From NCBI GenBank assembly GCA_025054695.1, contig JANWZI010000002.1, positions 1 through 64,000 of the forward strand: a stretch of DNA of 64,000 nt, read 5' to 3'. The position numbers and the translations under genes were made by a program. This document shows, piece by piece, positions 1 to 64,000 of this stretch. This stretch comes from Myxococcota bacterium (GTDB taxonomy: Bacteria; Myxococcota_A; Polyangia; Polyangiales; JANWZI01). The notes beneath the pieces were generated by a model that saw nothing but the letters and a program-made list of their open reading frames with translations, ran no database searches and was not told the origin of the DNA. Within the stretch, counting starts at the first letter, position 1. Every line of letters starts with the position of its first letter.

Positions 1-27
1 CGCCACGGTGTCGTGCGCAAGGGGTGG

Positions 28-258
28 GAGTCGGCCTCGGGCTCCGACTCGGTCACGGCCTCGGGCTCGGGCTCGGACTCGGATTCTGACTCGGCCTCGG
101 TCTCGGTCTCGGGCACGGGCTCCGACTCGGTCACGGCCTCGGGCTCGGACTCGGCCTCGGACTCGGATTCTGACTCGGGCTCGGCTCGGGCTCCGGACTC
201 GGGCCCGGCCTCGGCCTCCGGCTCGGACACAGTCCCGGCGGCGGTCTCGGTCTCTGTC
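28..258 (-). repeat. Degenerate hexamer array (GNCTCS)n on + strand, GAGNCC-type on - strand (array A1)
   Basis: Near-continuous TCGGNC units (cctcgggctccgactcggtcacggcctcgggctcgg...); 3' of the minus-strand acyl-CoA dehydrogenase; internal in-register duplications. Confidence 0.93.
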
Positions 259-281
259 CACGACCTCGAGCGGTCGCGTCG

Positions 282-1424
282 TCAACGACGGAGCAGCGAG
301 CGGGCGATGACGAGGCGCTGGATCTGGCTCGTGCCTTCGCCGATCTCGCACAGCTTGGCGTCGCGCAGGTGCCGCTCGACGGGAAACTCGCGCGTGTATC
401 CGTAGCCGCCGTGGATTTGCAATGCGCGGTGGCAGGCGCGGCTTGCCGCCTCCGAGGCGTACAGCTTCGCCATGGAGGCCTCGCGCGAATAGCGCTCGCT
501 CCGGTCCGCGAGCCACGCGGCGCGCCAAAGAAGCATCCGCGCGGCGTCCAGCTCAACCCTGCAATCCGCGATCATCCACTGGATCGCTTGATGTTCGGCG
601 ATGGGTCGCCCGAACTGCACGCGCTGTTTGGCGTACGCGACGGCGGCGCCGAGCGCGCCTTCGCCGAGTCCGAGCGCCATCGCGCCGATGCTGATGCGCC
701 CGCGGTCGAGGATCCGCAGCGTGTCGATGAAACCGTGGTCGACCTCGCCCAGGCGCTGCGCGTCGGGGACGACGCAGTTCTCGAAGATCAGTTCACAGGT
801 GTCGCTCGCGCGGCAGCCGAGCTTCTCGAGCTTGCGCCCGACACGGAAGCCGGGCGTGCCGTGCTCGACCACGAAGGCCGTGATGCCGTGCTGGCGGCGC
901 TGGGGATCGGTGACCGCGAGCACCACGCACAGCCCCCCCACCGAGCCCTGCGTGATGAACGTCTTGGTCCCGTCGATGACCCACGCGTCGCCACGTCGCA
1001 CGGCGCGCGTCCGCATCGCGCTCGCGTCGCTGCCGGAGCCCGGCTCGGTCAGCGCCCAGGCGCCGAGCATCCGGCCGCTGGCGAGCTCGGGCAAATACCG
1101 CCGCCGTTGCGCGTCGCTGCCGAACTGCAGGATGTGGCTCGTCGCCAGTCCGTTGTGCGAGGCGATGGTCAATGCGAGCGAGCCGTCGACGCGCGCGATT
1201 TCCTCGACGATGATCGCGTAGGCGAGCGTGTCGAGCCCCGCGCCCCCGTACGTCTCCGGCACGCGGATGCCGAGGAAGCCGAGCTCGGCCAGCCGCGGCA
1301 CGATTTCGTGCGGGAAGCGCTCCTCCTCGTCCCATTGACGTGCGCGTGGAGCGACCTCGCGTTCGGCGAACGCGCGCGCCGTCTCCCGAATCGCCTGGTG
1401 TGTCTCGTCGAGCCGAAAATCCAT
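282..1424 (-). CDS. Acyl-CoA dehydrogenase
   Basis: 380 aa; [26 protein letters not shown]..., [45 protein letters not shown] signatures. Confidence 0.95.
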
Positions 1425-1433
1425 CGTTGCAGT

Positions 1434-2384
1434 TCAGCGCGGCGGGGCGGCGCGGAAACGTTGTTCCGGGCCGCCGGGGACGTAGAGCTGCCAGGCGCGC
1501 AACGGCTCCCGGCCCGCGCCGCGGAAGTCGTGTAGCACACCGGCCGGCACGTGGACGAACCGCACGGGGCGCACCTCGAGCTCCGCATCGCCCACGCGCA
1601 TCGAGCCCTCGCCGGCTTCGATCCACAGCAGTTCGGCCGACGCCTCGTGCAGGTGCTCGGGCACGCGCAGGTCGGCGCGACCCTCGAGCCGGGACAGTGC
1701 TCCGAGCCGCGCCCCTCGCGTCGGTCCGTCGACAACGATGCGCACCGAGAGCGCGCCCGCCGCGACGGAGAGCGCCTCGACGTCGTCGATCCGGCCCGCC
1801 CAGCCGGGCGGCGGATCCTGCGCCCGGTGGCCCTGCGGATGCGTGCATCCCGAGGGCGGCGCGTAGAGCGCGTCCTCGAGCGACGTGGACGGATCGAAGG
1901 GGGCCGACCGATGGCGTGCCACGGCGAGGAGCAGCTCCACGGTCTGCTCGAACGGGTTGCCGAGCGACAGGCCGGGCGGGGCTCCGGCGTAGAGCACCCA
2001 TCCGCCCTCGACGTCCACCGGTTCGGCCACTCCCGCTAACCGGACGCGCGCGCGTCCCGACTCGACGATCGCGAAGAGCTCCTGGCAGTCGTTCGCCGGC
2101 AGCACGACGGACCCGCCGGGCTCGATTCGTATCCTGGCATACAATCCAGCGAGCGCGGTGCCGCGCGGACCGTGCGGTTCGAGGAGGCGCAGCGTGGCGC
2201 CGGCCGTCGTCGGGCGGGACGCCGCGGTCTCGCCCCCGGCCGTGTGCGGGCGCGCCGCCGAGGCCGCGCCGCATCCGACCGAGAGCAGAGCGACCAGGCG
2301 CGCGGCGCTCCTCGTACCCGCGCCACGGGCGCGCCGGCGGGGCTGGAGCATCCACGCGCGGCCCGTCGCGTGCCGAAAGCCCAT
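1434..2384 (-). CDS. Cupin-like secreted lipoprotein
   Basis: [13 protein letters not shown]... then LVALLSVGCG lipobox-like motif and two cupin-like segments (VPEHLHEASAELLWIEAGEGSMRVGDAELEVRPVRFVHVPAGVLHDF); ATGA overlap with upstream gene. Confidence 0.75.
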   Translation of the reverse strand: MGFRHATGRAWMLQPRRRARGAGTRSAARLVALLSVGCGAASAARPHTAGGETAASRPTTAGATLRLLEPHGPRGTALAGLYARIRIEPGGSVVLPANDCQELFAIVESGRARVRLAGVAEPVDVEGGWVLYAGAPPGLSLGNPFEQTVELLLAVARHRSAPFDPSTSLEDALYAPPSGCTHPQGHRAQDPPPGWAGRIDDVEALSVAAGALSVRIVVDGPTRGARLGALSRLEGRADLRVPEHLHEASAELLWIEAGEGSMRVGDAELEVRPVRFVHVPAGVLHDFRGAGREPLRAWQLYVPGGPEQRFRAAPPR

Positions 2385-2791
2385 CAAGCGGCTCTCGGCG
2401 TCACGTTCTCTCGAACCCACTGGATGATCTCGGACAGCGGCGTACCGGGCGTGAAGATGGCGCGCACGCCGGCGGCGCGTAGCCGCGGGACGTCCTCGTC
2501 GGGAATGATGCCGCCGCCGAACACGACGACGTCGTCGGCTCCTTCGCGCCGCAGTGCCTCGATCACCGCGGGAAAGAGCGTGTTGTGCGCCCCGCTCATG
2601 ATGGACAGGCCCACCGCGTCGACGTCTTCCTGTACCGCTGCGGCCGCGATCATGTCCGGCGTCTGGTGCAGACCGGTGTAGATGACCTCGAACCCCGCGT
2701 CGCGCAGCGCGCGCGCCACGACCTTGGCGCCGCGGTCGTGCCCGTCGAGGCCCGGCTTGGCGACGAGGATCCGGACCTTGCGATCGCTCAT
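2384..2791 (-). CDS. Cobalamin B12-binding domain protein (methylmalonyl-CoA mutase small-subunit-like)
   Basis: [45 protein letters not shown]: DxHxxG B12-binding motif. Confidence 0.92.
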
Positions 2792-8417: not shown

Positions 8418-8489
8418 GCTGGCCTAGCTCAACGGTAGAGCACCTGCCTTGTAAGCAGGGGGTTGTGGGTTCGAATCCCGCGGTCAGCT
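8418..8489 (+). tRNA. tRNA-Thr(TGT)
   Basis: GCTGGCC...CCTGC-CTTGTAA-GCAGG...GGTTCGAATCC...GGTCAGC cloverleaf. Confidence 0.95.
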
Positions 8490-8514
8490 CGTGGACGTGA
8501 CACGTGACGAGCTC

Positions 8515-8597
<83 letters not shown>

Positions 8598-8626
8598 CCG
8601 GGCGAGCGAGGCGCAACGACCCTGTC

Positions 8627-8699
8627 GCGGGAGTAGCTCAGTCGGTAGAGCGTCAGCCTTCCAAGCTGAACGTCGTGGGTTCGAGTCCCATCTCCCGCT
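8627..8699 (+). tRNA. tRNA-Gly(TCC)
   Basis: GCGGGAG...CAGC-CTTCCAA-GCTG...GGTTCGAGTCC...CTCCCGC. Confidence 0.95.
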
Positions 8700-8747
8700 C
8701 CCGGTGTCTGTGGAGGACGTGACGACGCGAGGACGAGGCACGAGCAG

Positions 8748-8819
8748 GCCCAGGTAGCTCAGTGGTAGAGCACCTCCTTGGTAAGGAGGAGGTCGCGAGT
8801 TCGATCCTCGTCCTGGGCT
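8748..8819 (+). tRNA. tRNA-Thr(GGT)
   Basis: GCCCAGG...CCTCC-TTGGTAA-GGAGG...AGTTCGATCCT...CCTGGGC. Confidence 0.95.
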
Positions 8820-8889
8820 CCGGGCACGAGCAACACGGCGCGCCCCCCGCCGACCCCCCGGGGGCGAGACACTTCGGAGGAACGACGAG

Positions 8890-10080
<1,191 letters not shown>

Positions 10081-10090
10081 GAGGCACGAC

Positions 10091-10399
<309 letters not shown>

Positions 10400-10415
10400 A
10401 CGGGAGGAGCGCGCC

Positions 10416-11111
10416 ATGGCCAGGGTTCCCGTCTACGATCTGGGTCGTAAACCGGTCGGCGAGGTCGATCTGCCGGACGCGATCTTCGCGGCCGAGGTGC
10501 ACGAGGCCGTCCTCTACGATGTGGTCAAGGCACAGCTCGCGAGCCGTCGCCGCGGTACCGCCAGCACGAAAAGCCGTGCCGAGGTGTCGGGCAGCACCCG
10601 CAAGCTCGGACGCCAGAAGGGCATGGGGCGCGCGCGGCACGGCGCCATCCGGGCGCCCATTTTTGTCGGGGGCGCGAGCCAGCATGGTCCCAAGCCGCGA
10701 AGCTACGCGTACCGACCTCCCCGCAAGATGCGCGTGCGCGCGCTGTGCAGTGCACTGTCGGCCAAGCTTCGCGAGGGACGGCTGCTTGTCGTCGATCGGT
10801 TCGAGCTGGAGCAGGTCAAGACGCGGGTGCTTGCCGCTGCGCTGGAGCGGCTCCAGGTCGGTGACGGTTCGCTCATCGTGGACCGAAAGGACAACGAGGG
10901 GTTGCGGCGGTCCGCGCGGAATCTGGCCGGCCATCTCGTGCTTCCCCCCGAGGGAGTCAATCCGTACGACGTGCTGCGGCACGCACATCTGGTGCTCACG
11001 CGCGACGCCGTCGATGCCCTAACGGCGCGTCTGGGCGCGATCGCCGAGCGACTCGCACACTCGCGACGACTGCGCGCGAAGGCTGCCGCTGCCGCGTCCC
11101 TGGAGGCATGA
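10416..11111 (+). CDS. rplD: 50S ribosomal protein L4
   Basis: [10 protein letters not shown]...[48 protein letters not shown]. Confidence 0.98.
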
Positions 11112-11115
11112 AGCC

Positions 11116-11406
11116 ATGGTGCCCGAGCGCGTCATCAAGCGTCCGATCATTCTCAGCGAGAAGGCGACCCGATTGCGGACCCGGCACAACAAGTACGTGT
11201 TCGAGGTCGATCGGGAAGCGACGAAGGGCGACGTGCGTCGCGCGGTCGAGACGCTGTTCAAGGTCTCGGTGACCGCGGTCCACACGCTGAACGTGCGCGG
11301 TCGGATGCGGCGCATGGGCCGCGGACACGCCAAGACGCAGAACTGGAAGAAGGCTATCGTCACGCTCGCGCCCGGGGAGAAGATCTCCGTGTTCGAGGGG
11401 AGCTGA
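11116..11406 (+). CDS. rplW: 50S ribosomal protein L23
   Basis: [46 protein letters not shown]. Confidence 0.98.
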
Positions 11407-11409
11407 GCC

Positions 11410-12234
11410 ATGGCTCGACGCGCCAAGCCGACCTCGCCGGCCCGTCGATTCGTCGACTTCTACGACCGTTCGATGCTCGACAAGAAGCCGCCCGAGCGCG
11501 GCCTGCTCGAGCCGCAGCGCTCGACGGGCGGGCGCAACAATCAGGGCCGGATCACGACGCGCTTCCGTGGCGGAGGGCACAAACAGCGATACCGTGTGAT
11601 CGATTTCCGCCGCGACAAGATCGGGGTGCCGGCGCGCGTCGCGGCGGTCGAGTACGATCCGAACCGCACGGCGCGCATCGCGCTGCTGCACTACGCCGAC
11701 GGGGAGAAGCGCTACATCCTCGCACCGGACGGCCTCGTGCGCGGCGAGACGGTGATCAGCTCGCGGCACGCCGACGTGCGGCCCGGCAACGCCATGCCGC
11801 TGCGTTATCTGCCGCTCGGGACGTTCGTCCACGCGGTCGAGCTCAAGCAGGGCAAGGGGGCGCAACTGGCCCGTTCGGCCGGTGTCGCCGCGCAGCTCAT
11901 GGCCAAGGACGGCGACTACGCACATCTGCGGCTTCCCTCGGGAGAGGTGCGCCGGGTGCACCTGGACTGTCGCGCAACCGTCGGTCAGGTGAGCAACGTC
12001 GAGCACGCGCGCATCTCGCTCGGCAAGGCGGGCCGCAAGCGCTGGCTCGGGCGGCGGCCGCACAATCGCGGCGTTTCCATGAACCCGATCGATCACCCGA
12101 TGGGGGGCGGCGAGGGCAAGACGTCCGGCGGACGTCATCCCTGCTCGCCGTGGGGTCAGCTCGCCAAGGGTCTGAAGACGCGCCGCAACAAGGCGACCGA
12201 CCGGTTCATCGTCAAGCGACGTGGAGGCAAGTGA
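11410..12234 (+). CDS. rplB: 50S ribosomal protein L2
   Basis: [28 protein letters not shown]...[29 protein letters not shown]. Confidence 0.99.
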
Positions 12235-12539
12235 TGGGACGCTCGCTCGCCAAAGGGCCGTTCGTCGACGACCACCTGCTCGCGAAGGTACAGGCGGCGC
12301 AACAGTCCGGGGACCGTCGGCTCATCCGTACTTGGTCGCGGCGGTCGACGATCACGCCGGAGTTCGTCGGGCTGACGCTCGCCGTCCACAACGGGCGCAA
12401 GTTCGTCAGCGTCTACGTCACGGAGAACATGGTCGGGCACAAGCTCGGCGAGTTCGCGCCGACGCGGACCTTTCACGGGCACGCGGCGGACAAGAAGACC
12501 GCGGGCAAGAAGGTCAACCCGCGCACGGGCAAGGCGTGA
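12234..12539 (+). CDS. rpsS: 30S ribosomal protein S19
   Basis: [19 protein letters not shown]...[28 protein letters not shown] overlap with rplB. Confidence 0.98.
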
Positions 12540-12613
12540 GCGGCCATGTCGGGTTGTGAGCCGGCTCGGGTCGTGCTAGGCACCGCCCCCTTCCGCTCGA
12601 GGGTCTCGTCCCC

Positions 12614-12958
12614 ATGAAAGCCATCGCCAAAGGCCGATTTCAGCGCATCGCGACCCGCAAGGCGCGGGCCGTGCTCGGCATGGTCCGCGGGCGAAAGGCC
12701 GCCGAGGCCGTGGCGTTGCTGCGACACACGCCGCGTGCGGCTGCGCGCGTGATCGAGAAGGTGCTCGACAGCGCCATCAGCAACGCGCGGCAGGCGGACC
12801 CGTCGGTCGACCTCGACGCCCTCGTGATCACCGTGGCGACGGCCGACAAGGCCCCCGACCGGCACATGCGGCGCTGGAGACCGCGCGCGCACGGCCGTGC
12901 GTCGCGCATCGTCAAGGGCATGTCGCACATCACCATCGTGGTGTCGGACGAGGTCTGA
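12614..12958 (+). CDS. rplV: 50S ribosomal protein L22
   Basis: RKARAVLGMVRGRKAAEAVALLRHTPRAAARVIEKVLDSAISNA...RWRPRAHGRASRIVKGMSHITIVV. Confidence 0.97.
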   Translation: MKAIAKGRFQRIATRKARAVLGMVRGRKAAEAVALLRHTPRAAARVIEKVLDSAISNARQADPSVDLDALVITVATADKAPDRHMRRWRPRAHGRASRIVKGMSHITIVVSDEV

Positions 12959-12961
12959 GCG

Positions 12962-13630
12962 ATGGGACAGAAGACGCACCCGTACGGCTTCCGCCTCGGC
13001 GTCATCAAGACGTGGAAGTCGAAGTGGTACGAGGACAAGCAGTACGCGCGCTGGTTGCACGAGGATCTCGCGCTCAAGCGCGAGATCCGGCAAAAGTACG
13101 CCCACGCCGGGATCGCGGACGTCGAGATCGAGCGCGCCGCGAACAAGGCCAAGGTGATCGTGCACACCGCGCGCCCGGGGATCATCATTGGCAAGCGCGG
13201 CGCCGGCGTCGAACAGCTCAAGCAGGAGCTGCAGAAGCTGACCCAGAACGAGCTGTTCGTCGACATCGTCGAGGTGCGCAAGGCGGAGACGAATGCGAAG
13301 CTCGTCGCCGAGAACGTCGCGACGCAGATCGAGCGTCGCGTCGCGTTCCGCCGCGCGCTCAAGAAGGCGGTCTCCACCGCGATGAAGTTCGGCGTGCGCG
13401 GCATCAAGATCGTGGCTGGCGGCAGGCTCGGCGGCGCGGAGATCGCGCGCACCGAGAAGTATCGCGAGGGCCGCGTGCCGCTGCACACGCTGCGCGCGGA
13501 CATCGAGTTCGGGGAGGCGACGGCGCACACGACGGCCGGCACGATCGGGATCAAGTGCTGGATCTTCAAGGGCGAGATTCGGGAGGCGCGGCGGCGAAGG
13601 CCGGCGCAGCCGGTACCGGACCGCTTCTGA
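12962..13630 (+). CDS. rpsC: 30S ribosomal protein S3
   Basis: [36 protein letters not shown]. Confidence 0.98.
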
Positions 13631-13646
13631 GACGGGAGTCACGTCC

Positions 13647-14075
13647 ATGCTCGCGCCCAAGCGGACCAAGTACCGGAAGCAGATGCGGGGCAGGCTCAAG
13701 GGCTTCGCACGCTCGGACACGCGCAGCGGCGCGCGGATCGCGTTCGGCGACTTCGCGCTGCAGGCGACCGAGCGCGGGTGGGTGACGGCGCGCGAGATCG
13801 AGGCGGGCCGCATGGCGATTCAGCGGCACGTCAAGCGCGCGGGTCGGCTCTACATCCGGATCTTCCCGGACAAGCCGGTGACCAAGAAGCCGCTCGAGGT
13901 CCGCATGGGCACCGGCAAGGGCAACGTCGAGTATTGGGTTGCGGTGGTTCGGCCGGGGCGCATTCTGTTCGAGATGGAAGGGGTGCCCGAGCCGCTGGCC
14001 CGGGAAGCGCTGCGGCTTGCGTCGCACAAGCTGTCGGTGGCCACCCAGATCCGCATGCGGGGGGATGCGCCGTGA
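13647..14075 (+). CDS. rplP: 50S ribosomal protein L16
   Basis: [26 protein letters not shown]...[42 protein letters not shown]. Confidence 0.98.
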
Positions 14076-14281
14076 AGATCGCCGAGATCCGCGATAAGAG
14101 CACGGAGGAGCTGCGGAGCCTGGAGCGGGATCTGGTCCGGCAGCTCTGGCAGGCGCGATTCGACAACCACGCGAGTCAGCTCGACGACACGGCCCGGATC
14201 CGCCGCCTCCGGCGGGACGTGGCCCGGGTCAAGACGGTGCTGCGGGAGCGCGAGCTGCGCGCAGGCGAGGCGAAGCGATGA
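14072..14281 (+). CDS. rpmC: 50S ribosomal protein L29 (GTG start)
   Basis: [66 protein letters not shown] overlap with rplP. Confidence 0.95.
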
Positions 14282-14604
14282 GCGAGACGGATCGGCAATC
14301 GGCACAGCAGGCCTCCGCGCCGCGCACGACGGAGCGCGGACGCCGCCGGCGACTGATCGGGCGCGTGGTGAGCGACACCTCGTCGCCGGGTCGCATGCAG
14401 AAGACGGTCATCGTCGAGGTCGTCTCGCGTCATCGCGACCCGCTCTACGGCAAGTACGTCAAGCGGCGTCGCCGCTTCGCCGCGCACGACGAGCGCCACG
14501 CGTACCGCACGCGCGACCTGGTCGAGATCACCGAGAGTCGCCCGCTGTCCCGAACCAAGCGCTGGGTCGTCACGCGGCTCGTGGAGCGGCCACCGGAGGT
14601 CTGA
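14278..14604 (+). CDS. rpsQ: 30S ribosomal protein S17
   Basis: LIGRVVSDTSSPGRMQKTVIVEVVSRHRDPLYGKYVKRRRRFAAHDE. Confidence 0.95.
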   Translation: MSETDRQSAQQASAPRTTERGRRRRLIGRVVSDTSSPGRMQKTVIVEVVSRHRDPLYGKYVKRRRRFAAHDERHAYRTRDLVEITESRPLSRTKRWVVTRLVERPPEV

Positions 14605-14607
14605 GCC

Positions 14608-14976
14608 ATGGTCCAGCAGGAGAGTGTCCTCGAGGTCGCCGACAACTCCGGCGCCAAGCGCGTGCTTGTCATCCGCGTGCTGGGCGCCTCGCGGCGGCGG
14701 TACGCGAGCCTGGGCGACGTGGTCGTGTGCGCCGTCAAGGAGGCGATTCCGACCGCGAAGGTCAAGAAGGGCGAGGTCGCGCGTGCGGTGGTGGTGCGGA
14801 CCCGGCGGGAGGTGCAGCGCTGGGACGGCAGCTACATCAAGTTCGACTCGAACGCCGCCGTCCTGCTCAACAAGGACAACGAGCCCATCGGCACGCGCAT
14901 CTTCGGGCCGGTCGCGCGCGAGCTGCGCGCCAAGAAGTTCATGAAGATCATCTCGCTTGCGCCGGAGGTGGTCTGA
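14608..14976 (+). CDS. rplN: 50S ribosomal protein L14
   Basis: [26 protein letters not shown]...[29 protein letters not shown]. Confidence 0.98.
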
Positions 14977-15290
14977 TGCAGCGGATCCGCAAGGGGGACC
15001 TGGTGGTCGTGATCGCCGGCGAGGACCGCGGGACGCGGGGCCGGGTGCTGCGCGTCGACCGCGAGCGCGATCGCGTCGTCGTCGAGGGCGTCCGGCGCGT
15101 CAAGCGGCACGTCAAGGCGCGCCCCAATCAGCCCGGGGGCATCGTCGAGGTCGAGGCGCCGATCCACATCAGCAACGTGATGCCCGTCGATCCGAAGACG
15201 GATCGGCCGACGCGCGTACGCGCGGGGACGGATAAGGACGGGCGGAAGGTTCGCATCGCGGCGCGTTCGGGCGCGCTGCTCGATGGATGA
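14976..15290 (+). CDS. rplX: 50S ribosomal protein L24
   Basis: [47 protein letters not shown]. Confidence 0.97.
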
Positions 15291-15342
15291 GGGGGCCCGG
15301 ACGCACCCGAACGAGGCCGTCACGTCGAAGAGAGGCGGAGCG

Positions 15343-15897: not shown

Positions 15898-15906
15898 GAG
15901 CGACCG

Positions 15907-16092
15907 ATGGCGAGTCAGCGCATGTTCGCGAAGCTGAAGCGGACGCCGAAGTTTCCCGTCCGCCACCGCAACCGGTGCAAGGAGTGCGGCCGTCCCCGGG
16001 GCTATTACCGCAAGTTCCAGCTCTGCCGCATCTGCCTGCGCAAGTACGCGCTCTCGGGCGACATTCCGGGAATGACCAAGTCGAGCTGGTGA
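15907..16092 (+). CDS. rpsN: 30S ribosomal protein S14, zinc (C+) type
   Basis: 61 aa; [46 protein letters not shown]. Confidence 0.98.
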
Positions 16093-16102
16093 GGCGGGCG
16101 CC

Positions 16103-17100: not shown

Positions 17101-17102
17101 AC

Positions 17103-17450: not shown

Positions 17451-17465
17451 CGGAGGGACGAGGCG

Positions 17466-20002: not shown

Positions 20003-20019
20003 CCCGTCGAGGACGACGC

Positions 20020-20792: not shown

Positions 20793-20804
20793 GAGGGGAG
20801 TGCC

Positions 20805-21182: not shown

Positions 21183-21190
21183 GGTGAGCG

Positions 21191-24020: not shown

Positions 24021-24275
24021 TGCGAGTCCGAGCCCAAGCCGGAGGGTCCGATTCGAGCCCGAGTCCCTCCCCGAGTCCGAGCCCGAGTCCGAGTCCGAGT
24101 TCGAGTTCGAGCCCAAGACCGAGCCCGAGTCCGAGTCCGAGACCGAGACCGAGTCCGAGTCCGCTTCGGAGTCGGACTCCAATCCTGACTCCGAGTCGGA
24201 GCCCGAGCCCGAGACGGCCCCCGAGTCCGCGTCGGAGTCCTACACCGAGACCGAGCTCGACGACGAGCCGCAATC
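24021..24275 (+). repeat. Degenerate hexamer array, GAGNCC orientation on + (A2)
   Basis: gagtccgagcccaagccg...gagtccgagcccgagtccgagtccgag...; between rplQ terminator and kinase gene. Confidence 0.93.
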
Positions 24276-24358
24276 GACCGACCTGGCTGCCGCTGCGAGC
24301 CTGGATGCGATCGTTCGACCCGCGGGTGCGACGCTGCGGATGATATCGTACGCCACGG

Positions 24359-25766: not shown

Positions 25767-26828
25767 GTGCTAGCCTCCGTTCGGGTCGTGCGGCGAGCCG
25801 TTGCGCCTCTCGCCACCTTGCTTTTGCCAGCACTCGTCGCCTGTGGGGGCGAGGGGGAGCCCGACCCGGCGAGCGAGCGCCGGACGTGGATCCACGCCTT
25901 CGAACCGTTCGACGCGGCGACCGGGACGGAGATCGTCGACGTCTGTCAGAGCTGGACGCTGCACAACGACGAGCCGCTGTGGGTCACGGCCGTGCGCATG
26001 GAGAACGACGGCGCTTGGCACCACAGCAACTGGTTCTTCGTGCCCGAAAGCGTCTACCGCGGGCCGGACGGCGGCGATGGCGACGGAACGTGGCCTTGCG
26101 CGGAACGGGGTTTCGATCAGGTCGGAGCGGCCAGCGCGGGAGGCGTCCTGTTCGCGCAGTCGACGCAGGCGCGTGCCGAGGAACAGCGATTCGCCGCGGG
26201 TGCGGCGATCCGCCTTCCGGCGCGCGTGCGAATCGTGGGCAGCATCCACGTGCTCAACCTCGGCCCGCCGATTCGCACCGGGATCCGACTCACCCTGGAG
26301 ACGCTGCCCGAATCGGAAGTCCGCGTCCGGCTCGCGCCGCTCAACATGAGCTACTTCGCGCTGGACCTGCCGCCGCGCCGGCGCAGTGCCTTCGCCGTCA
26401 GCTGTGACTTCGAAACCCCCTATCGCCGGCTGTTGGGCCGGCCGCTCGATTTCGGCATTTACTACGTGCTTCCCCATTACCACACGCTCGCGGAAGGACT
26501 GCGCCTCGAGCTCGTCGGGGGACCGAACGACGGGCAGGTCGTTTTCTCGACCGACGCCGCGATCGGCGACCCGCTCGGTCGTGGGTACGATCCACCGTTC
26601 TCTCTGGTGGGCGCAACGGGCCTGCGGCTGACGTGCGCGTACGACAACCCACGCGACGAGCGCGTCGTTTACGACATCGGTGACCAGGAGATGTGCGACG
26701 TGCTCGTGTATACCGACAGCCCCCTCATCATTGGCGGCTGGGCACGCACGGGCATGCCCGTGGGGGACGACCCCGAGGGCGTCGCGTTGCACGAGGGACA
26801 CTGCGAGGTGCTCGCGCTTCGCGACTGA
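25767..26828 (+). CDS. Putative secreted lipoprotein, function unknown (GTG start)
   Basis: [16 protein letters not shown] lipobox; long conserved-looking extracellular domain with several Cys/His ([14 protein letters not shown]). Confidence 0.75.
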
Positions 26829-26866: not shown

Positions 26867-27121
26867 TGCGAGTCGGAGACCGTCGGAGTCCGAGCCGGAG
26901 TCGGAGACCGAGCCCGAATCCGAGTCCGAGTCGGAGCCCGAGTCGGAGACCGAGCCCGAGTCGGAGACCGAGTCCGAGTCCGAGCCCGAGCCCGAGTCGG
27001 AGACCGAGTCCGAGTCCGAGACTGAGCCGGAGCCCGAGTCGGAGACCGAGCCCGATTCCGAGTCCGAGTCCGAGCCCGAGCCCGAGTCGGAGACCGAGCC
27101 CGAGCCCGAGTCCGACCCCGA
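26867..27121 (+). repeat. Degenerate hexamer array, GAGNCC orientation on + (A3)
   Basis: gagtcggagaccgagcccgagtcggagaccgag... ~40 units; internal 41-bp in-register duplication. Confidence 0.95.
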
Positions 27122-27271
27122 GATCTGCACTCCGTCCGAGGTTGCCGCGACCACCGAGGTGCAGCGTGGGCCTCGGGGCTCGAGGCTGCATGGCTGCGGG
27201 GACATCGGTTCGCGTGCCACGCCTTCGGGACTACATTGCATCCGGTTCGGAGCGAGTCGATGGAGGCCCCC

Positions 27272-27961
27272 ATGACGGATCGCATTCGCGTTCACGTCCG
27301 CTACCACGCAGCCGCACGCGAGCTCGCCGGCTGCAGCGAGGAGAGCGTCGACCTCGACGAGGGGACCCGCGCCGCCCTGCGACGCGCCATCGGCGCGCGG
27401 CATCCGGCCCTCGCGCCGCGAATGGATCGCATGCGGCTCGCGCGCAACGGCGAGCTCGTCGACGACCGCGCGCACGAGGATCGGCTCGAGCCCGACGACG
27501 AGCTCGACGTGCTTCCGCCGGTCGCCGGCGGCGCGAGCGGCGTGCTTCTCGCCGAGGTGCGCGAGACCCCGCCGTCGGTCGACGAGGTGCTCGCGGCGGT
27601 CGCATGGCCCGGTGCCGGCGCTCTGTGTCTGTTCGTCGGCGTCGTGCGCGACGAAGCCGGGGGCAAACCCGTCAGCCGTCTCGACTACGAGGCGCACCCG
27701 ACTCTCGCTCCGCTGCAGCTTCGCCGCGAGCTCGACGAGGTCGCACGACGGTGGCCATCGGTGCGACTCGCCGCCGTCCATCGCGTCGGCAGTCTGTCCG
27801 TCGGCGATCTGGCGGTCGTCATCGCCGTCGCGGCGCCCCATCGTGCCGAGGCGTTCGACGCGTGCCGCGAGGCCATCGAACGCATCAAGCAGACGGTTCC
27901 GATCTGGAAAAAGGAGTGGGGGCCGGACGGCAGCGCGCACTGGGTCAACCTCGATGGCTGA
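27272..27961 (+). CDS. MoaD-MoaE fusion (molybdopterin synthase)
   Basis: N-terminal MoaD-like domain ending [10 protein letters not shown], then MoaE-like domain ([17 protein letters not shown]...[10 protein letters not shown]...[46 protein letters not shown]). Confidence 0.9.
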
Positions 27962-27990
27962 TCACCGCGCTCAGGTTGCCTGATCGATCT

Positions 27991-28089
27991 TCGGACTCCA
28001 GGTCCACGTCGGCCTCGGCCTCGGGCTCGGACTCGGTCTCGGACTCGGATGCCGTCTCGGACTCGGACTCGGGCTCGGAGTCGGACTGG
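27991..28089 (-). repeat. Degenerate hexamer array, TCGGNC orientation on + (A4)
   Basis: tcggcctcggcctcgggctcggactcggtctcggactcgg... Confidence 0.9.
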
Positions 28090-28127
28090 CAACGTCGGTC
28101 CGTGCCATCCATCAACCCGATCGGCGC
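28081..28127 (-). repeat. 47-bp array leader, left inverted copy
   Basis: Reverse complement gcgccgatcgggttgatggatggcacggaccgacgttgccagtccga matches 29179-29225 at 40/47 positions. Confidence 0.85.
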
Positions 28128-28253
28128 TGTGAGAACCTGGAGACGCGGCCGGACCGAGAACGCGTGCGCGCCGCGCGTCAAGGGGCCGCGAAGCGCGTGC
28201 GAGCGGACGCGCTTGACCGGGATCGCACGCCCTCCTAGCGTCGTCGGCTGCGC

Positions 28254-29198
28254 GTGTCCCCCGTTCAGCTCACGATCGCGTGGCCGTCCGAGGCACTCGA
28301 CGAGGAGGGACGACGTCGTGCCGTCGAAGCGCGGTTGCGTGCCTTGCTCGCCGAGCGCGTGACGGTCGTGCTGACCGACAATCGCCACATCATGCTCTCG
28401 TCGCGTCGCACCCCGACCGAGCTGCGCGTGCGCATGCACCGCATGTTCCTCGACGCGGGCGACGACGTGCTCGTCGCGGTGGCGCGGTACCTGCGCCGCG
28501 GCGATCGGCGGGCTGCGGCGCGTCTGGACGCATTCATCGCGGCGCACACCCACCGCATCCGCCGCGAGCCGCGCCGCGCGACGGCCCTGCGGCCGGCGGG
28601 GCGCTGGCACGACCTGTGCGCCCTCTTCGACGAGCTCAACCGCCGCTGGTTCGACGGCGCGCTCGATCTGCGCGTCACCTGGGGTCGTGCGGGCCCCGTC
28701 CGCCGCCGTCGCCGCCGCTCCATCCGCCTCGGCGTCTACGTGCCGGACGAACGGCTCATTCGGATCCACCCCGCGCTCGATCAGCCGTGGGTCCCGCGCT
28801 TTTTCGTCGCCTACGTTCTGTTCCACGAGATGTTGCACCACGCGGTGCCGGCTCCGGTGCGAGGCGGGCGCCAGTGCTTCCACAGCGCCGAGTTCCGCGT
28901 GCGCGAGCGTGCCTATCCGGACTACGAACGCGCTCTGCGCTGGGAGCGCGAGCATCTGGGCCGGCTCATGCGCTCGGCCCACGCCGCGGTGCACGGGCTC
29001 GCGCCCTGGCAACTGACTCGCGAGCGGGGCCCCGACGCGGCCCGCCCCGCGGGCATGCGGCAGGTCGCCCGCCGGGGTCGCGTGCGTGCGGCGCAGACCG
29101 GATCGCACGCCGAGCGCCGTTCGCGCCGATCACGCCGCAGGAGGGCAACCGGGGGTGTTTCGGGGTCCGCGTCCGGCGGCGCCCATCGGATTGCTTGA
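28254..29198 (+). CDS. SprT/M48-like zinc metallopeptidase-fold protein (GTG start)
   Basis: FVAYVLFHEMLHHAVPAPVRGGRQCFHSAEFRVRERAYPDYERA: HEXXH plus downstream acidic residues. Confidence 0.75.
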   Translation: MSPVQLTIAWPSEALDEEGRRRAVEARLRALLAERVTVVLTDNRHIMLSSRRTPTELRVRMHRMFLDAGDDVLVAVARYLRRGDRRAAARLDAFIAAHTHRIRREPRRATALRPAGRWHDLCALFDELNRRWFDGALDLRVTWGRAGPVRRRRRRSIRLGVYVPDERLIRIHPALDQPWVPRFFVAYVLFHEMLHHAVPAPVRGGRQCFHSAEFRVRERAYPDYERALRWEREHLGRLMRSAHAAVHGLAPWQLTRERGPDAARPAGMRQVARRGRVRAAQTGSHAERRSRRSRRRRATGGVSGSASGGAHRIA

Positions 29199-30739
29199 TG
29201 GTGCGGACCGACGTTGCGAGTCCGAGCCCGAGCCCGAGACGGCGTCCGAGCTAGAGCCGGAGCTCGAGCCCGAGTCCGAGGCCGAATCGGCGCAGCACCG
29301 CGATGCGAGGCGTCCCGCGCGAAGGGCCGCCGTCGCCGACGTGCGCGATGCATGCACCGCTGCGCGCATTGGCGGGGCAGTCCACTCTGAAACGGTCGCG
29401 CGCGGGGGAGCCAGCGCGCCGCGAACGGCCAGCGTTCCACGTCGCACAGGTCGTCGAGGCGGAACGGCTCGCCGCGCCATCGCCCACGCACCGCAATGGG
29501 GCCCGCGCCGCGCGCGCAGACGTGTCGTACGTGCGCGGCGAGCACCCGGCGGTCGTGCAGTCCGTCCAGGAGCCAGCGACGCGTACGCTCCGCGCCGTCG
29601 AAGCGCCCGCCGACGCGGACCTCGTCGAATCGCACGTACGGGTCGACGAGGCGCATCGACTCGGGGAAGACCAGGCTGTTCCAGCATCCTTCGTCGATGC
29701 GGAGGTTGCTGAGCATCGCTCCGGTGCCGTGGAAGCGTAGACCCAGGTACGGGGTGAGCCCGTGGGCCACGCACAAGAGTGCCAGCGCGACCGCAGCGAA
29801 CAGGCCACGACTCCCCACCGGCTCGCGCCAGGCGCCCCAGCGGCGCAACACGCTTCGCGGCCGCGTCGCCAGGGCCGTCAGCGCCCAGGCGGACAGCATC
29901 CACAGCGCCGCTTCCTTCAGATGCCAGAACGGATACAGGATGTGGTGATCGCGCAGGTACAGGGCGAAGGTGAACGACCCCGCGCCCACGCCGAAGCCCA
30001 CGAAGAAAGGCCAGCGCCGCCTCCACAGACGGCGCAGCCAGACCAGGTCGCGCGTACCGAGAAAAGCCACCCAGCCGGACACCATCGGTGCGGCGAACGC
30101 GGGTGCGAAGACCACCGTGAGCGGGATGTGCATGAGCGCCGCGAGCGCGATCCCCGCGGCGGGCCAGAGCACCAGCAACACCGAGACGCCGATCTCGGCG
30201 AGCAGGAAGGCGTGCGGCAGCAGCGGCGCGTCGGCGAGCGTCGCGAGCCAGGGAAGGCTCCAGTTCTCCGCGAGGATGCGGAGCCCCTCGGCCGCGCAAC
30301 CCCGTTGCACGTCGAAAAATCCGCGATTGAGCTTGTGCAACGCCGCGAGCGCGTACAGGGCCACGGTCGGAACACGCACCAGCAGAGCGAGGGGTCGGTC
30401 GGTGCGCCAGGCGAGCCCCGAGGCCGACCCGAGCGTGCAGGCCGTCGCCGCGGCCGCGACGGCGGTCAGATAGAAGCTCTGCGTGAGCACGTCGCCGATG
30501 GCGAGCGCCCACAGCTTGCTCGCGAGCACGAGGGGCCAGCCCACGGGCCAGCCGTCGATCGCGAGCGCGAGCGCGCCGAGCATGCCGAGGGCCGTCGCGC
30601 CGAGACGGTCGATCGCGAGGTTCTCCGGAAGTGTGAGATGGATCACCATCGCGAGCGCGAACAGGCGTGCGTGCACCAGGTACCGGGGCGCATCGGTCGG
30701 TCGCCGCATCCACCGGCTGCCGCCCCGCAACTCGCGCAT
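28922..30739 (-). CDS. HTTM-like (vitamin-K-dependent carboxylase-like) membrane protein; 3' end uncertain
   Basis: RLFALAMVIHLTLPENLAIDR...FFDVQRGCAAEGLRILAENWSLPWLATLADAPLLPHAFLLAEIGVSVLLVLWP; frame stays open through array A5 into the antisense of the 28254-29198 gene, so the true C-terminus is unclear. Confidence 0.65.
   Translation of the reverse strand: MRELRGGSRWMRRPTDAPRYLVHARLFALAMVIHLTLPENLAIDRLGATALGMLGALALAIDGWPVGWPLVLASKLWALAIGDVLTQSFYLTAVAAAATACTLGSASGLAWRTDRPLALLVRVPTVALYALAALHKLNRGFFDVQRGCAAEGLRILAENWSLPWLATLADAPLLPHAFLLAEIGVSVLLVLWPAAGIALAALMHIPLTVVFAPAFAAPMVSGWVAFLGTRDLVWLRRLWRRRWPFFVGFGVGAGSFTFALYLRDHHILYPFWHLKEAALWMLSAWALTALATRPRSVLRRWGAWREPVGSRGLFAAVALALLCVAHGLTPYLGLRFHGTGAMLSNLRIDEGCWNSLVFPESMRLVDPYVRFDEVRVGGRFDGAERTRRWLLDGLHDRRVLAAHVRHVCARGAGPIAVRGRWRGEPFRLDDLCDVERWPFAARWLPRARPFQSGLPRQCAQRCMHRARRRRRPFARDASHRGAAPIRPRTRARAPALARTPSRARARTRNVGPHHQAIRWAPPDADPETPPVALLRRDRRERRSACDPVCAARTRPRRATCRMPAGRAASGPRSRVSCQGASPCTAAWAERMSRPRCSRSQRRARS
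29179..29225 (+). repeat. 47-bp array leader, right inverted copy
   Basis: gcgcccatcggattgcttgatggtgcggaccgacgttgcgagtccga. Confidence 0.85.
29217..29297 (+). repeat. Degenerate hexamer array, GAGNCC orientation on + (A5)
   Basis: gcgagtccgagcccgagcccgagacggcgtccgagctagagccggagctcgagcccgagtccgaggccgaatcgg. Confidence 0.85.
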
Positions 30740-34227: not shown

Positions 34228-34282
34228 AGCCCGGAGCCCGAGCCCCAGCCAGAGTCCGAGGCGGAGCCCGGATCCCGAGGCG
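34228..34282 (+). repeat. Short degraded hexamer array, GAGNCC orientation on + (A6)
   Basis: ggagcccgagccccagccagagtccgaggcggagcccggatcccgagg. Confidence 0.65.
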
Positions 34283-40351: not shown

Positions 40352-40391
40352 GGACGCTCGCTGGATTCGGAGTCGGCCGACGACGCCTTCA

Positions 40392-40530
40392 CGGGCTCGG
40401 ACTTTGTCTCGGAGTCTGTCTCGGTCTCGGACTCGGACTCGGACTCGGACTCAGCCTCGGTTTCTGTCTCGCACTTTGTCTCGGGTCGGACTCTGGCTCG
40501 GACTCGGACTCCGAATCGGTCTCGGTCTCG
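40392..40530 (-). repeat. Degenerate hexamer array, TCGGNC orientation on + (A7)
   Basis: gggctcggactttgtctcggagtctgtctcggtctcggactcggactcggactcgg... between convergent genes. Confidence 0.88.
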
Positions 40531-40655
40531 CGCTCCCAATACTCCTCGGCCGAGTCGACCCACGTGATCCCCGCCGTCACGGGCACCGACCGGACTTGGG
40601 TTGCTGTCGCGGCGCGACGAGCCCTGCGCGCGCGTGTCGCTCTCCTCGTGCGCGC

Positions 40656-45440: not shown

Positions 45441-45510
45441 GGAGTCGGAGCCAGGGTCCGCGCCCGAGACCGAGTCGGAGACCGAGTCCGAGCCCGAGTC
45501 GGAGCCCGAT
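45441..45510 (+). repeat. Degenerate hexamer array, GAGNCC orientation on + (A8)
   Basis: ggagtcggagccagggtccgcgcccgagaccgagtcggagaccgagtccgagcccgagtcggagcccg; between convergent genes. Confidence 0.88.
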
Positions 45511-47913: not shown

Positions 47914-48000
47914 CGCCGACACCGTTGTCGAGGCTGACGCGTTCCGAGCCGCGGAGCCAGCGGCCATGGCAATCGGTTGTGTCCGTGTGCGTCGAGGTTC

Positions 48001-48186
48001 GGGCTCTGTCTCGGACTCGGACTCGGACTCGGTCTCGGGCTCGGACTCCGACTCGGCCTCGGTCTCGGTCTCGGACTCTGACTCTGACGCGGCCTCGGTC
48101 TCGGATTCGGCCTCGGGCTTGGACTCGGCCTTGGTCTCGGATTCGGCTTCGGTCTCGGACTCGGTCTCGGTCTCGGACTCCGTCTC
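48001..48186 (-). repeat. Degenerate hexamer array, TCGGNC orientation on + (A9)
   Basis: gggctctgtctcggactcggactcggactcggtctcgggctcgg...; lies between divergent genes, open in frame with scpA. Confidence 0.93.
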
Positions 48187-48307: not shown

Positions 48308-49120
48308 ATGGAGGTGCCGGCCGGCTCCGATCCGACGTTCCGCGTCGCGGTTGGCTCGTTCGAGGGGCCACTCGACCTGCTGCTGCACCTGGTGCGCCGG
48401 CACGAGCTCGACATCCTCGATCTGCCCGTCGCGTTCATCACCGAGCGTTACCTCGAGTACCTCGCGACGATGCGTGAGCTCGATCTGGACGTCGCCTCCG
48501 AGTACCTGCTCATGGCCGCGACGCTCGTGCACATCAAGAGCCGTATGCTGCTGCCCGCGCCGCCGCCGGAGCCGAACGACGACGATTCGGCCGAGTCCGA
48601 CGTGGACCCGCGCGCCGAGCTCGTGCGCCGCCTGCTCGAATATCAGAAGTATCGCGACGCTGCGGCCCGTCTGGGCGATCGGCCCCTCCTCGGTCGCGAC
48701 GTCTTCCTGCGCGGCGTGCCCGCGGCGGACACGGAGGAGCCGGCACCCCTCGACCCGCCGACGCTGTTCGCGCTGGTCGAGGCCGTCTCGCGCGTGCTGC
48801 AGCGAGCGCGGCAGCGCGCCGCCTTCTCGGTCGAGGCGGAGACCGTCAGCCTCCAGCAGCGCATCGCGGACGTGATCGACGTTTTGCGCACGCGGCGGCG
48901 CGCCCTCTTCGAGGATCTCTTCGAGCCGGGCCACGGTGTGCGCGCCGTCGTAGTGACCTTTCTCGCCATCCTCGAGCTCGCGCGACGACGCCTCATCTCG
49001 ATCTATCAGGCAAGCGATGGCGGCTCCATTCACATCGAGGCGCGATTCGAGGCCCATCCGGACGAAGCGTGCTCGGTGCCGCCGACCTACCTCGCGAACG
49101 AGACGGGGCAGGCGCCGTGA
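48308..49120 (+). CDS. scpA: Segregation and condensation protein A
   Basis: [66 protein letters not shown]. Confidence 0.95.
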
Positions 49121-50148
49121 CGGACGTGTCCGAGCGCAAATCGCGACCCCGGCTGCGACGGGTGGACATGCCGCGGCAGTCCGAGCTCGTCTGCGGACCG
49201 ACGCATCCGCCGCCTGCATCGGCTTCACCGGGTGATGGCCTCCGCCCCTCGGATCGGTTCGAGACGGATTGCGCTCCGGCCGGCGCCGACCGCGACGGGG
49301 CGGCGGACGCCGACCCCCGCCGACTGCATCGCGCCATCGAGAGCCTCGTCTTCGTTTCCGACCGACCGCTGTCGAGCAAGGAGCTCGCCCGCCTGACGCG
49401 GAGCCGACGCGCGGACGTCGAGCGCGTGCTCGCCGAGCTGTGCGAGGAGACGCGTGAGCGAGGCGTGCAGCTCGTCGAGGTCGCAGGCGGGTGGCAGTTC
49501 CGCTCGGACCCGTCGTCCGCGCCCTACGTACGCGAGCTGCTCGCGCGCCCGCCGGTGCGGCTGACGCGTGCGCAACTGGAGACTCTGGCCATCGTCGCCT
49601 ATCGGCAGCCGATCACCCGGCCTGAGATCGAAGAGATCCGCGGCGTCGACTCCTCGAGCGCCATCGGCTTTTTGCTCGAGCGCGGACTGCTACGCGTGCT
49701 CGGGCGCAAGGAAGAGCCCGGCAGGCCGCTGCTCTACGGAACCACGCAGGCGTTCCTCGAGACGTTCGGTTTGAACGCGCTGTCCGACCTGCCCACCCTG
49801 CGCGAATTCGCCGAGCTCACCGAGGAGAACCGCGAGCTGTTCGCGCGACGTGCGACCGAGTCGCTCGACCTGCGCGCCGCAGCGGGCTCAGACTCGGACT
49901 CCGACTCGGGCTCGGACTCGGGCTCGGACTCGGACTCGGGCTCCGGCTCGGACGCGGTCGCCGGTTCGGACTCGGACTCCGACTCGGACTCGGACTCCGA
50001 CTCCCTCTCGGACTCGGGCTCGGGCTCGGACTCGGGCTCCGGCTCGGACGCGGTCGCCGGTTCGGACTCGGACTCCGACTCGGGCTCGGACTCGGACTCG
50101 GACTCCGACTCGGTCTCGGCCTCCGCCTCGGTTTCGGACTCGCGGTAG
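49117..50148 (+). CDS. scpB: Segregation and condensation protein B with SD-repeat tail encoded by the hexamer array
   Basis: ALTSxx-type winged helix [19 protein letters not shown]...[67 protein letters not shown], then [28 protein letters not shown]... Confidence 0.93.
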
Positions 50149-50205
50149 GCCTCGGCCTCGGTGTCGAACTCGCACTCGAGCTCGGGCTTCGAGTCCGCTT
50201 CGGGC
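49885..50205 (-). repeat. Degenerate hexamer array, TCGGNC orientation on + (A10)
   Basis: Longest array; contains a 59-bp in-register duplication (49929-49987 / 50025-50083); last ~50 bp degraded. Confidence 0.95.
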
Positions 50206-50298
50206 TACGGTGTCCCTGCGCAACCGCGCACGTCCGGCACGTAGCGGCTGAACGATTCGCGGTGACACCGCCGCGGCGCGGAGCTAGCGTGGCGCCCC

Positions 50299-51138: not shown

Positions 51139-51142
51139 CGAT

Positions 51143-51206
51143 TCGGCCTCGGACTCGAGCTCGGTCTCGGGCTCGGGCTCGGCGTCGGACACGGACTTGG
51201 CCTCGG
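51143..51206 (-). repeat. Degenerate hexamer array, TCGGNC orientation on + (A11)
   Basis: tcggcctcggactcgagctcggtctcgggctcgggctcggcgtcggacacgg. Confidence 0.85.
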
Positions 51207-51284
51207 GCCGAGATCGGTGGAGGATTCCGTGCCGCGGGCCGCTGGATGCCCATGACCGACCCGTCGTGATAGAGCGCGGCCGCG

Positions 51285-58121: not shown

Positions 58122-58183
58122 GGTGTCGCGCGCACGGGCGAGGTGTGCGCCGCGTCCTATTCCGAGCGGACGCCGGGACCGTG

Positions 58184-58236
58184 ACCGAGCCCGAGTTCGA
58201 GCTCCAGTCCGAGCGCGAGTCCCAGTTCGAGCCCGA
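58184..58236 (+). repeat. Degraded hexamer array, GAGNCC orientation on + (A12)
   Basis: accgagcccgagttcgagctccagtccgagcgcgagtcccagttcgagcccgaattc. Confidence 0.7.
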
Positions 58237-63219: not shown

Positions 63220-63266
63220 CGCCCTCGCCCCGGCTCCGACGAACGCGCCTCGACGTCTTGGCCGGC

Positions 63267-63758
63267 TCAGCCCACCGCTTCGTCGGGCAACTGCAAGAGG
63301 CGGTCATTGGCCCGCCGGCGCCAGTCGTGGAAGAGGACCGCGGTCAGCAACACGACCGCCACGCCGAAGAACGTTCCGAACGGCCCGATCGCCTCGAACG
63401 TCACGGCGATCAGGTTCTCGAGCAGCACCGAGCCGCCGAGGACTGCGAGCCAGCTCAGCACAGTGGTCGTGAGCGCGACGAAGAGGCCGACGCGGAAGAT
63501 GGCCAGCGCGCCGATTGCGGCGACGACGCTGGGGGCGATGAGCACCACGGCGGGAGACGCGTCGAGCACCCGCGTCACGAAAAGGCACGCGCTCACCGGA
63601 ATGGCGTGTCCGATGGCGCGCAGCCACGTCGCACGGCGCGGGTCGTCGGTGAACATATAGACGAAATGCCTTGCGACGGCGGCCTGCAGCAACGTGGAGA
63701 GGAGCAGGGCGACGACCAAGGCAATGGTGGCTTCTGCGAGCGAAACGACGGTGGACAT
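63267..63758 (-). CDS. Small integral membrane protein, unknown function
   Basis: MSTVVSLAEATIALVVALLLSTLLQAAVARHFVYMF... several TM helices. Confidence 0.7.
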   Translation of the reverse strand: MSTVVSLAEATIALVVALLLSTLLQAAVARHFVYMFTDDPRRATWLRAIGHAIPVSACLFVTRVLDASPAVVLIAPSVVAAIGALAIFRVGLFVALTTTVLSWLAVLGGSVLLENLIAVTFEAIGPFGTFFGVAVVLLTAVLFHDWRRRANDRLLQLPDEAVG

Positions 63759-63887
63759 GGTCACGACCTCCGGGTTGACGCACCGGGTATCGGGCGAACC
63801 CGCGGCCGATTGCGTACCCCGTGTGTCCCGAGACGCGCGCCGAACGGGCCGACGGCTCACGCGGCCGATGGCGCCGGGCGTCGTGCT

Positions 63888-63920
63888 CGATTCGGGGCAG
63901 TGGCTTGGGTACCCGAATCG
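63888..63920. terminator. Perfect 9-bp-arm hairpin next to final array
   Basis: CGATTCGGG-(15 nt)-CCCGAATCG. Confidence 0.5.
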
Positions 63921-63938
63921 GGGGCCGTGCCTAAGCCC

Positions 63939-64000
63939 GTGTCGGAGTCCGTGTCCGAGTCCGACTTCGAGCCCGAGTCTGAGCCCGAGCCCGAGTCTGA
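63939..64000 (+). repeat. Degenerate hexamer array, GAGNCC orientation on +, truncated by window end (A13)
   Basis: cccgtgtcggagtccgtgtccgagtccgacttcgagcccgagtctgagcccgagcccgagtctga. Confidence 0.88.

What the first reader, a model, noticed from the sequence alone, without database searches (positions are those of the whole stretch)
1..64000. Dispersed family of intergenic 'GNCTCS' hexamer arrays (13 loci) with one near-free position per unit
Sequence: 13 arrays (28-258, 24021-24275, 26867-27121, 27991-28089, 29217-29297, 34228-34282, 40392-40530, 45441-45510, 48001-48186, 49885-50205, 51143-51206, 58184-58236, 63939-64000) share a 6-bp unit GNC-TC(G/C) or its complement. GNC takes all four bases (GAC/GGC/GTC/GCC), while the other positions are nearly fixed apart from the G/C wobble. 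Simple slippage would give homogeneous units, so the persistent variability at one column suggests selection on the 5-base frame, ongoing mutation at N, or a dedicated generating mechanism. I know of no named bacterial repeat family with this structure, but I could not search.
Basis: seen in the sequence. Interest (0 to 1): 0.92.

Follow-up and report, generated by a model that had tools for sequence, protein, structure and literature searches.

The report
Jumping elements carrying variable hexamer arrays
The repeated six-letter DNA stretches scattered between the genes of this myxobacterium-like genome look like the cores of a family of very small mobile elements, about a thousand copies' worth, which often land exactly on a gene's stop codon and leave it intact.

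Summary
A hexamer HMM finds exactly the 13 arrays in the window. The unsorted 1.0 Mb sample of the same genome (4.27 Mb, Myxococcota, nearest named RpoA matches include Sandaracinaceae) has 231 arrays, so about 990 genome-wide, covering 2.8% of the DNA. Column 2 carries 1.79 bits of entropy against 0.41-0.94 for the others.

The missing piece is what the arrays are. Where ends are still readable they are the core of a MITE-like element: a conserved 43-bp head, (CGAGNC)n, and a ~35-bp tail. Head and tail end in ~25-bp imperfect terminal inverted repeats, bounded by a 3-bp target duplication T(G/C)A (16 of 17 readable pairs identical). 36% of readable target sites are a gene's stop codon (5% expected). 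One complete copy lies in the window at 27959-28132, its TGA being the MoaE-family gene's stop.

N is not randomised at insertion: array starts are inherited within subfamilies. N behaves as unconstrained, the other five columns as about half-constrained, and arrays reshuffle so fast that N-strings are not shared between copies.

The architecture is known (BrickBuilt, pneumococcal BOX). The sequence, copy number, stop-codon landing and mixed hexamer core are new. No mobilising transposase was found.

The parts
27..258 (-). array 1 (CGAGNC units read on - strand); contig edge on the left; no readable ends
   Evidence: HMM score 164; ends not found; contains a 13-unit block duplication
24023..24260 (+). 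array 2, downstream of the rpoA-rplQ end of the ribosomal operon
   Evidence: right TIR at 24274-24300 score 26.2 (background 99% = 5.7)
24274..24300 (+). right TIR of element 2
26826..26828 (+). TGA stop codon of the gene 25788-26828, which is also the left target site of element 3
   Evidence: left TIR 26826-26852 score 8.8, just above background 7.7, so weak on its own
26869..27123 (+). array 3
   Evidence: score 223
27959..28132 (-). complete element 4: TSD TGA - right TIR - array - head/left TIR - TSD TGA (subfamily II)
27959..27961 (+). TSD copy 1 = TGA stop codon of the MoaE-family gene (27260-27961)
27991..28087 (-). array 4 (core of element 4)
28088..28129 (-). head with left TIR of element 4 (subfamily II)
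   Evidence: TIR score 27.7
28130..28132 (+). TSD copy 2 (TGA)
29174..29216 (+). head with left TIR of element 5 (subfamily II); target site decayed (CGG)
   Evidence: score 21.7
29217..29290 (+). array 5
34234..34270 (+). array 6 (short), no readable ends
40363..40535 (-). array 7, between convergent genes
40536..40579 (-). head with left TIR and TGA target site of element 7
   Evidence: score 27.0
45442..45509 (+). array 8, between convergent miaA-like (IPPT) and TPR-protein genes; ends not readable
47999..48186 (-). array 9, between divergent genes upstream of scpA
49883..50206 (-). array 10; mostly read in frame as a Ser-Asp/Gly/Val/Ala C-terminal tail of ScpB; 96-bp block duplication
51140..51208 (-). 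array 11
58150..58236 (+). array 12 (degenerate)
   Evidence: score 46
63913..64000 (+). array 13, cut by the window end

Best explanation
The arrays are the cores of a high-copy family of MITE-like, non-autonomous transposable elements, built as target site / head with TIR / (CGAGNC)n / tail with TIR / target site. A transposase acting in trans, now lost or outside the assembly, inserted them with a 3-bp duplication of T(G/C)A (inferred). When the target is a TGA stop codon the duplication keeps a stop in place, so those insertions, and insertions downstream of genes generally, survive; this would produce the 3'-end and convergent-gene bias (inferred). After insertion the array is inherited, then loses and gains units and blocks and takes substitutions. 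Ends decay in most copies. Column N is essentially unconstrained, while the other five columns change at about half the rate of the ends. Shown: ends, inverted repeats, TSD, stop-codon coincidence, copying of an element between unrelated flanks, inheritance of the first unit. Inferred: the transposase, survival as the cause of the bias, and the nature of the constraint on the frame. For the arrays without readable ends, membership in the same family is inferred from identical composition.
For: Head and tail recur next to arrays: of 410 arrays, 113 have a readable head, 85 a tail and 51 both. TIR matrix: 264 hits against 5 in reversed sequence, 197 of them near arrays; the left and right matrices agree at most of the first 25 positions. 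TSD: where both target sites read TSA, 16 of 17 are identical and 1 is opposite; if TSA were part of the inverted repeat they would all be opposite. Stop codons: 39 of 109 TSA ends fall exactly on a called stop codon against 5.1% of genomic TSA, p ~1e-22. Mobility: L248:18299 and L231:4101 match from TGA to the tail's CTGT, with unrelated flanks. Inheritance: unit-1 N is C in 34/57 of subfamily I (p=2e-6) and T in 14/17 of subfamily II (p=0.008). Position: of all gene gaps, 64/109 convergent, 99/462 tandem and 22/104 divergent carry an array. An element appears to start inside another's array at L077:4906-5016.
Against: 263 of 410 arrays have no readable end, including 8 of 13 in the window, so for most copies the element is inferred. 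No transposase family searched is present: PF01609, PF13340, PF00665, PF01797, and no autonomous copy was found in the 1.7 Mb read. No array N-words are shared between copies beyond chance, which is odd for copied elements and needs very fast array turnover. Array purity is the same with and without readable ends, which simple decay after insertion would not predict.
Confidence: 0.82

Rival explanations
1. Ordinary microsatellites: local hexamer slippage at many independent loci, with chance conserved flanks.
For: Some arrays contain block duplications of 3-16 units. A same-order genome (G040) has plain hexamer microsatellites with the same frame.
Against: N autocorrelation is nearly absent at every lag, against 0.86 lag-1 identity in G040. 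Conserved heads, TIRs and TSDs are not produced by slippage.
Confidence: 0.05
2. Domesticated regulatory or structural DNA: the elements arrived by transposition, but the arrays are now kept by host-level selection, for example as protein-binding or transcription-blocking sites between converging genes. This adds to the best explanation.
For: 57 of 61 convergent gaps of at least 150 bp carry one. Fixed-column purity is the same whether or not ends are still readable. Fixed columns diverge about half as much as the heads.
Against: No orientation preference relative to genes (55 vs 40). Survival bias alone gives a convergent excess, as reported for pneumococcal repeats. Gaps holding arrays are longer because of the array, so the 57/61 figure is inflated; without a length cut it is 64/109. 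The HMM cannot see strongly decayed arrays, which flattens purity.
Confidence: 0.2
3. Directed mutagenesis of N, as in a diversity-generating retroelement or a template with one free position.
For: Variation is concentrated in one column; the commonest base there is the only A of the GACTCG unit.
Against: No reverse transcriptase (RVT_1) in the 92.6% complete assembly. First-unit N is inherited within subfamilies. Recent block duplicates keep N.
Confidence: 0.03
4. Remains of coding repeats (Glu-[Ser/Pro/Thr/Ala] or Ser-[Asp/Gly/Val/Ala] tails).
For: Both strands give open low-complexity frames; ScpB reads through array 10.
Against: Length shifts between units that are not multiples of 6 are mostly not multiples of 3 either. 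Third-codon columns are no more variable than first or second. Arrays lie between genes in both orientations.
Confidence: 0.03
5. Assembly or binning artefact.
For: Fragmented assembly (261 contigs); I could not see reads.
Against: Mixed units make each array unique and easy to assemble. Only 3 of 38 whole-contig ends lie within 150 bp of an array. Arrays sit between ordinary genes throughout the contigs read.
Confidence: 0.02

Closest known systems
BrickBuilt MITE of Porphyromonas gingivalis (PMC4596501)
   Same: Leader + tandem-repeat core + tail, small inverted-repeat ends, intergenic, variable unit number, some copies lacking leader or tail, restricted to one lineage.
   Different: 23-nt unit against 6-nt mixed unit; 19 copies against about 1000; TIR GAGACC... 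against ACGGCGGCGGTCA...; TSDs irregular there, a regular TSA here; no stop-codon landing in that paper's text (0 occurrences of the term).
BOX elements of Streptococcus pneumoniae (PMC3049150)
   Same: Modular end-(core)n-end repeat, core number variable, over-represented between convergent genes.
   Different: boxB is far longer than 6 bp (own knowledge: ~45 bp); stem-loop RNA structure is prominent there, while folding here is only slightly better than shuffled (mean z about -1.2).
Intergenic TAACTGA heptamer repeats (Beggiatoaceae, cyanobacteria; PMC4679880)
   Same: Short-unit tandem repeats at many intergenic loci of one genome.
   Different: Fixed unit, 2-6 copies per set in that genome, mostly just upstream of start codons; no dispersal mechanism evident to its author.
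Tandem repeats of Borg elements (PMC9879509)
   Same: Many intergenic and genic tandem repeats; genic ones add disordered stretches (cf. ScpB here).
   Different: Perfect units, different at each locus, formed locally; here one unit family genome-wide with transposon ends.
IS5-family insertion sequences of the ISL2/IS1031 type (own knowledge)
   Same: 3-bp TNA target duplications resemble the TSA seen here.
   Different: No such transposase found; no TIR comparison to ISfinder could be run.

Membership tests
MITE (miniature inverted-repeat transposable element) | Terminal inverted repeats | tested here: met
   ~25-bp imperfect TIR
MITE (miniature inverted-repeat transposable element) | Target site duplication | tested here: met
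   TSA, 16 of 17 readable pairs identical
MITE (miniature inverted-repeat transposable element) | Short, no transposase gene inside | tested here: met
   readable complete copies are mostly one to three hundred bp without genes
MITE (miniature inverted-repeat transposable element) | Multiple copies at unrelated sites | tested here: met
MITE (miniature inverted-repeat transposable element) | A transposase whose element shares the TIR | tested here: inconclusive
   four transposase families absent from the assembly; no autonomous copy in the 1.7 Mb read; the rest of the genome was not scanned for one, and the partner may be lost
MITE (miniature inverted-repeat transposable element) | Empty site in a relative | not testable with these tools
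   no genome of the same family among those held
BrickBuilt-type MITE with tandem core | Leader - tandem core - tail architecture | tested here: met
BrickBuilt-type MITE with tandem core | Same unit or TIR sequence | tested here: not met
   TIR and unit differ from those printed in PMC4596501
REP/BIME | RAYT (Y1) transposase | tested here: not met
   PF01797 absent
REP/BIME | Palindromic unit | tested here: not met
   GNCTCS is not palindromic; arrays are single-orientation
Diversity-generating retroelement | Reverse transcriptase | tested here: not met
   PF00078 absent
Simple microsatellite | Homogeneous neighbouring units | tested here: not met
   contrast G040

The most novel reading that the evidence does not exclude
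A transposon family has been turned into a genome-wide system of hexamer boundary marks.
Probability: 0.17. Interest if true: 0.85.

Novelty: new variant of a known kind. Interest (0 to 1): 0.6.

Why it matters
It turns a puzzling repeat into a defined element with ends and a target rule. The family is unusually dense, about one array per 4.3 kb, and lands on stop codons in a way that preserves them, a neat route by which a transposon can fill a compact genome without breaking genes. Because readable copies keep head, array and tail of different ages, the family allows a direct test of what holds a tandem repeat's frame constant: selection, homogenisation or transposition.

Tried and rejected
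Backwards-pattern control: poor, because a reversed array still partly matches; replaced by simulated DNA. Birth-time randomisation of N: suggested by pooled autocorrelation and first-unit data on a small head set, rejected after splitting heads into subfamilies. Test of N against fixed columns in duplicated blocks: inconclusive, since most detected blocks are chance (55 blocks against 43 in shuffles). Autonomous copy by facing TIRs 0.6-3.5 kb apart: most pairs are two neighbouring elements or chance, none convincing. Element against plasmids: no match. Head DNA in 145 relatives: own genome only. Strict mixed-N pattern in 290 genomes of the class: 55 matches in this genome, one each in three others. 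First TSD count on the larger set failed through a 2-base offset in the tail coordinates; corrected. G038 gave too little sequence with arrays to judge.

Full report
WHAT IS THERE. The window is 64 kb of a 4.27 Mb, 261-contig, 92.6% complete genome. The nearest named RpoA sequences are Sandaracinaceae and other Myxococcota MAGs at 71-78% identity, and the genome is alone in its family among those held. A period-6 HMM recovers exactly the 13 arrays reported. In 0.997 Mb read without regard to arrays there are 231 arrays (2.8% of bases), so about 990 genome-wide by extrapolation. Column entropies are 0.53, 1.79, 0.77, 0.69, 0.41 and 0.94 bits. N is purine-rich (69%). The base on either side of N (G-N-C) reads the same on both strands, so a purely neutral, context-symmetric process would give A=T and G=C at N. 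It does not, which is unexplained.

WHERE THEY SIT. 87% of arrays overlap called genes by less than 10%. Arrays occur in 64 of 109 convergent, 99 of 462 tandem and 22 of 104 divergent gene gaps, and lie closer to stop codons than to starts. In tandem gaps there is no clear strand preference (55 vs 40). Tight operons, such as the EF-Tu/S10-spc-alpha ribosomal operon at 8890-23829, hold none. Gene calls come from a codon-usage caller written here, so starts are approximate; stop positions are exact for correctly called frames.

THE ELEMENT. Distances from stop codon to array peak at exactly 40 bp, and those 40 bp are alike between loci. Iterated profile searches give a head, T(G/C)A-CRGCGGCGGTCACGTTGSTTGACGTGGCCGAGGGGTGTTG, followed by (CGAGNC)n, and a tail ending in GATCGACCAACCTGGCCGGCGCCG-T(G/C)A. 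The first ~25 bases of head and reversed tail match each other. Of 410 arrays, 113 have a head, 85 a tail and 51 both. The second half of that sample was partly chosen because it held heads, so densities are taken from the first half only. In 45 ungapped complete copies the three bases at each end are identical in 16 of the 17 cases where both are TGA or TCA, in direct and not inverted register, which makes them a target duplication. 39 of 109 such target sites coincide with a called stop codon, against 5.1% of all TGA/TCA; in the unbiased half it is 21 of 56. Two loci with unrelated flanks carry the same element from TGA to the tail, with a co-linear array that differs by one 6-bp unit and by substitutions. 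In the window, element 4 is complete (27959-28132, TGA...TGA), its first TGA being the stop codon of the MoaE-family gene. Elements 2, 3, 5 and 7 keep one readable end; eight arrays keep none.

WHY N VARIES. Pooled over arrays, N is almost memoryless, and N-strings are not shared between arrays more than shuffles allow. That looked like random generation. It is not: split by head subfamily, the first unit keeps an ancestral N (C in 34/57; T in 14/17), and the memory is lost over the next few units. Subfamily II even keeps a recognisable prefix CGAGTC CGACTC CGAGCC CGAGTC. Clear recent block duplications keep N. In subfamily II, N at unit 1 differs from the majority in 18% of copies, the head in 17% and the other columns in 0-18% (mean 7%). 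So N changes about as fast as the ends, and the frame about half as fast; this rests on 17 copies. The likeliest reading is that arrays were already mixed in the ancestor, are inherited, and turn over quickly by unit and block gain or loss, while the frame is mildly constrained. Whether the constraint is host selection, a requirement of transposition (units as transposase or host-factor sites), or homogenisation is not settled. Equal purity in arrays with and without readable ends favours something acting in place, with the caveat that strongly decayed arrays escape detection.

WHAT IT IS NOT. A same-order genome with many hits (G040) has plain homogeneous hexamers. A strict mixed-N pattern is essentially confined to this genome among 290 of the class, and the head to this genome among 145 relatives. 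No reverse transcriptase, Y1, DDE_1, DUF4096 or rve family is found in the assembly; multi-copy transposase genes are often missing from binned assemblies (own knowledge), so absence is not strong evidence. Folding of complete elements is only slightly better than shuffled (mean z -1.2 and -1.1).

KNOWN KIND. BrickBuilt in Porphyromonas gingivalis is a MITE with a tandem-repeat core between leader and tail, 19 copies in the strain studied, some lacking leader or tail. Pneumococcal BOX elements are modular with variable core number and are over-represented between convergent genes, which its authors read as tolerance of insertions downstream of genes. The present family works like these but shares no sequence with BrickBuilt as printed. 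New here are the copy number, the mixed hexamer core and the stop-codon target.

Noticed in passing
49117-50148: ScpB carries a ~90-residue Ser-Asp/Gly/Val/Ala tail because its frame runs through array 10: a repeat array has become part of a chromosome-segregation protein.
   Followed up: partly
8418-23829: Four tRNA genes, EF-Tu and an S10-spc-alpha type ribosomal operon through rpoA and rplQ, free of arrays; the next array follows directly after the operon.
   Followed up: partly
L077:4780-5020: One element appears to start inside the array of another (head of a second copy follows CGAGACG of the first): nested insertion.
   Followed up: no
whole genome G000: No matches to four common transposase families or to reverse transcriptases in a genome with about a thousand element copies.
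   Followed up: partly
G040 (L171-L190): A same-order 8.9 Mb genome rich in homogeneous (GNCTCG)n microsatellites, each array with its own fixed N: same frame, different behaviour; any connection to the element family is unknown.
   Followed up: partly
L212:15656-15753 and L223:15500-15605: Very short copies with only 3-4 units between both TIRs, possibly close to the minimal element.
   Followed up: no
all arrays: N shows a strong purine excess on the GNCTCS strand (69%) although its neighbours (G-N-C) are strand-symmetric; not explained by neutral mutation.
   Followed up: partly
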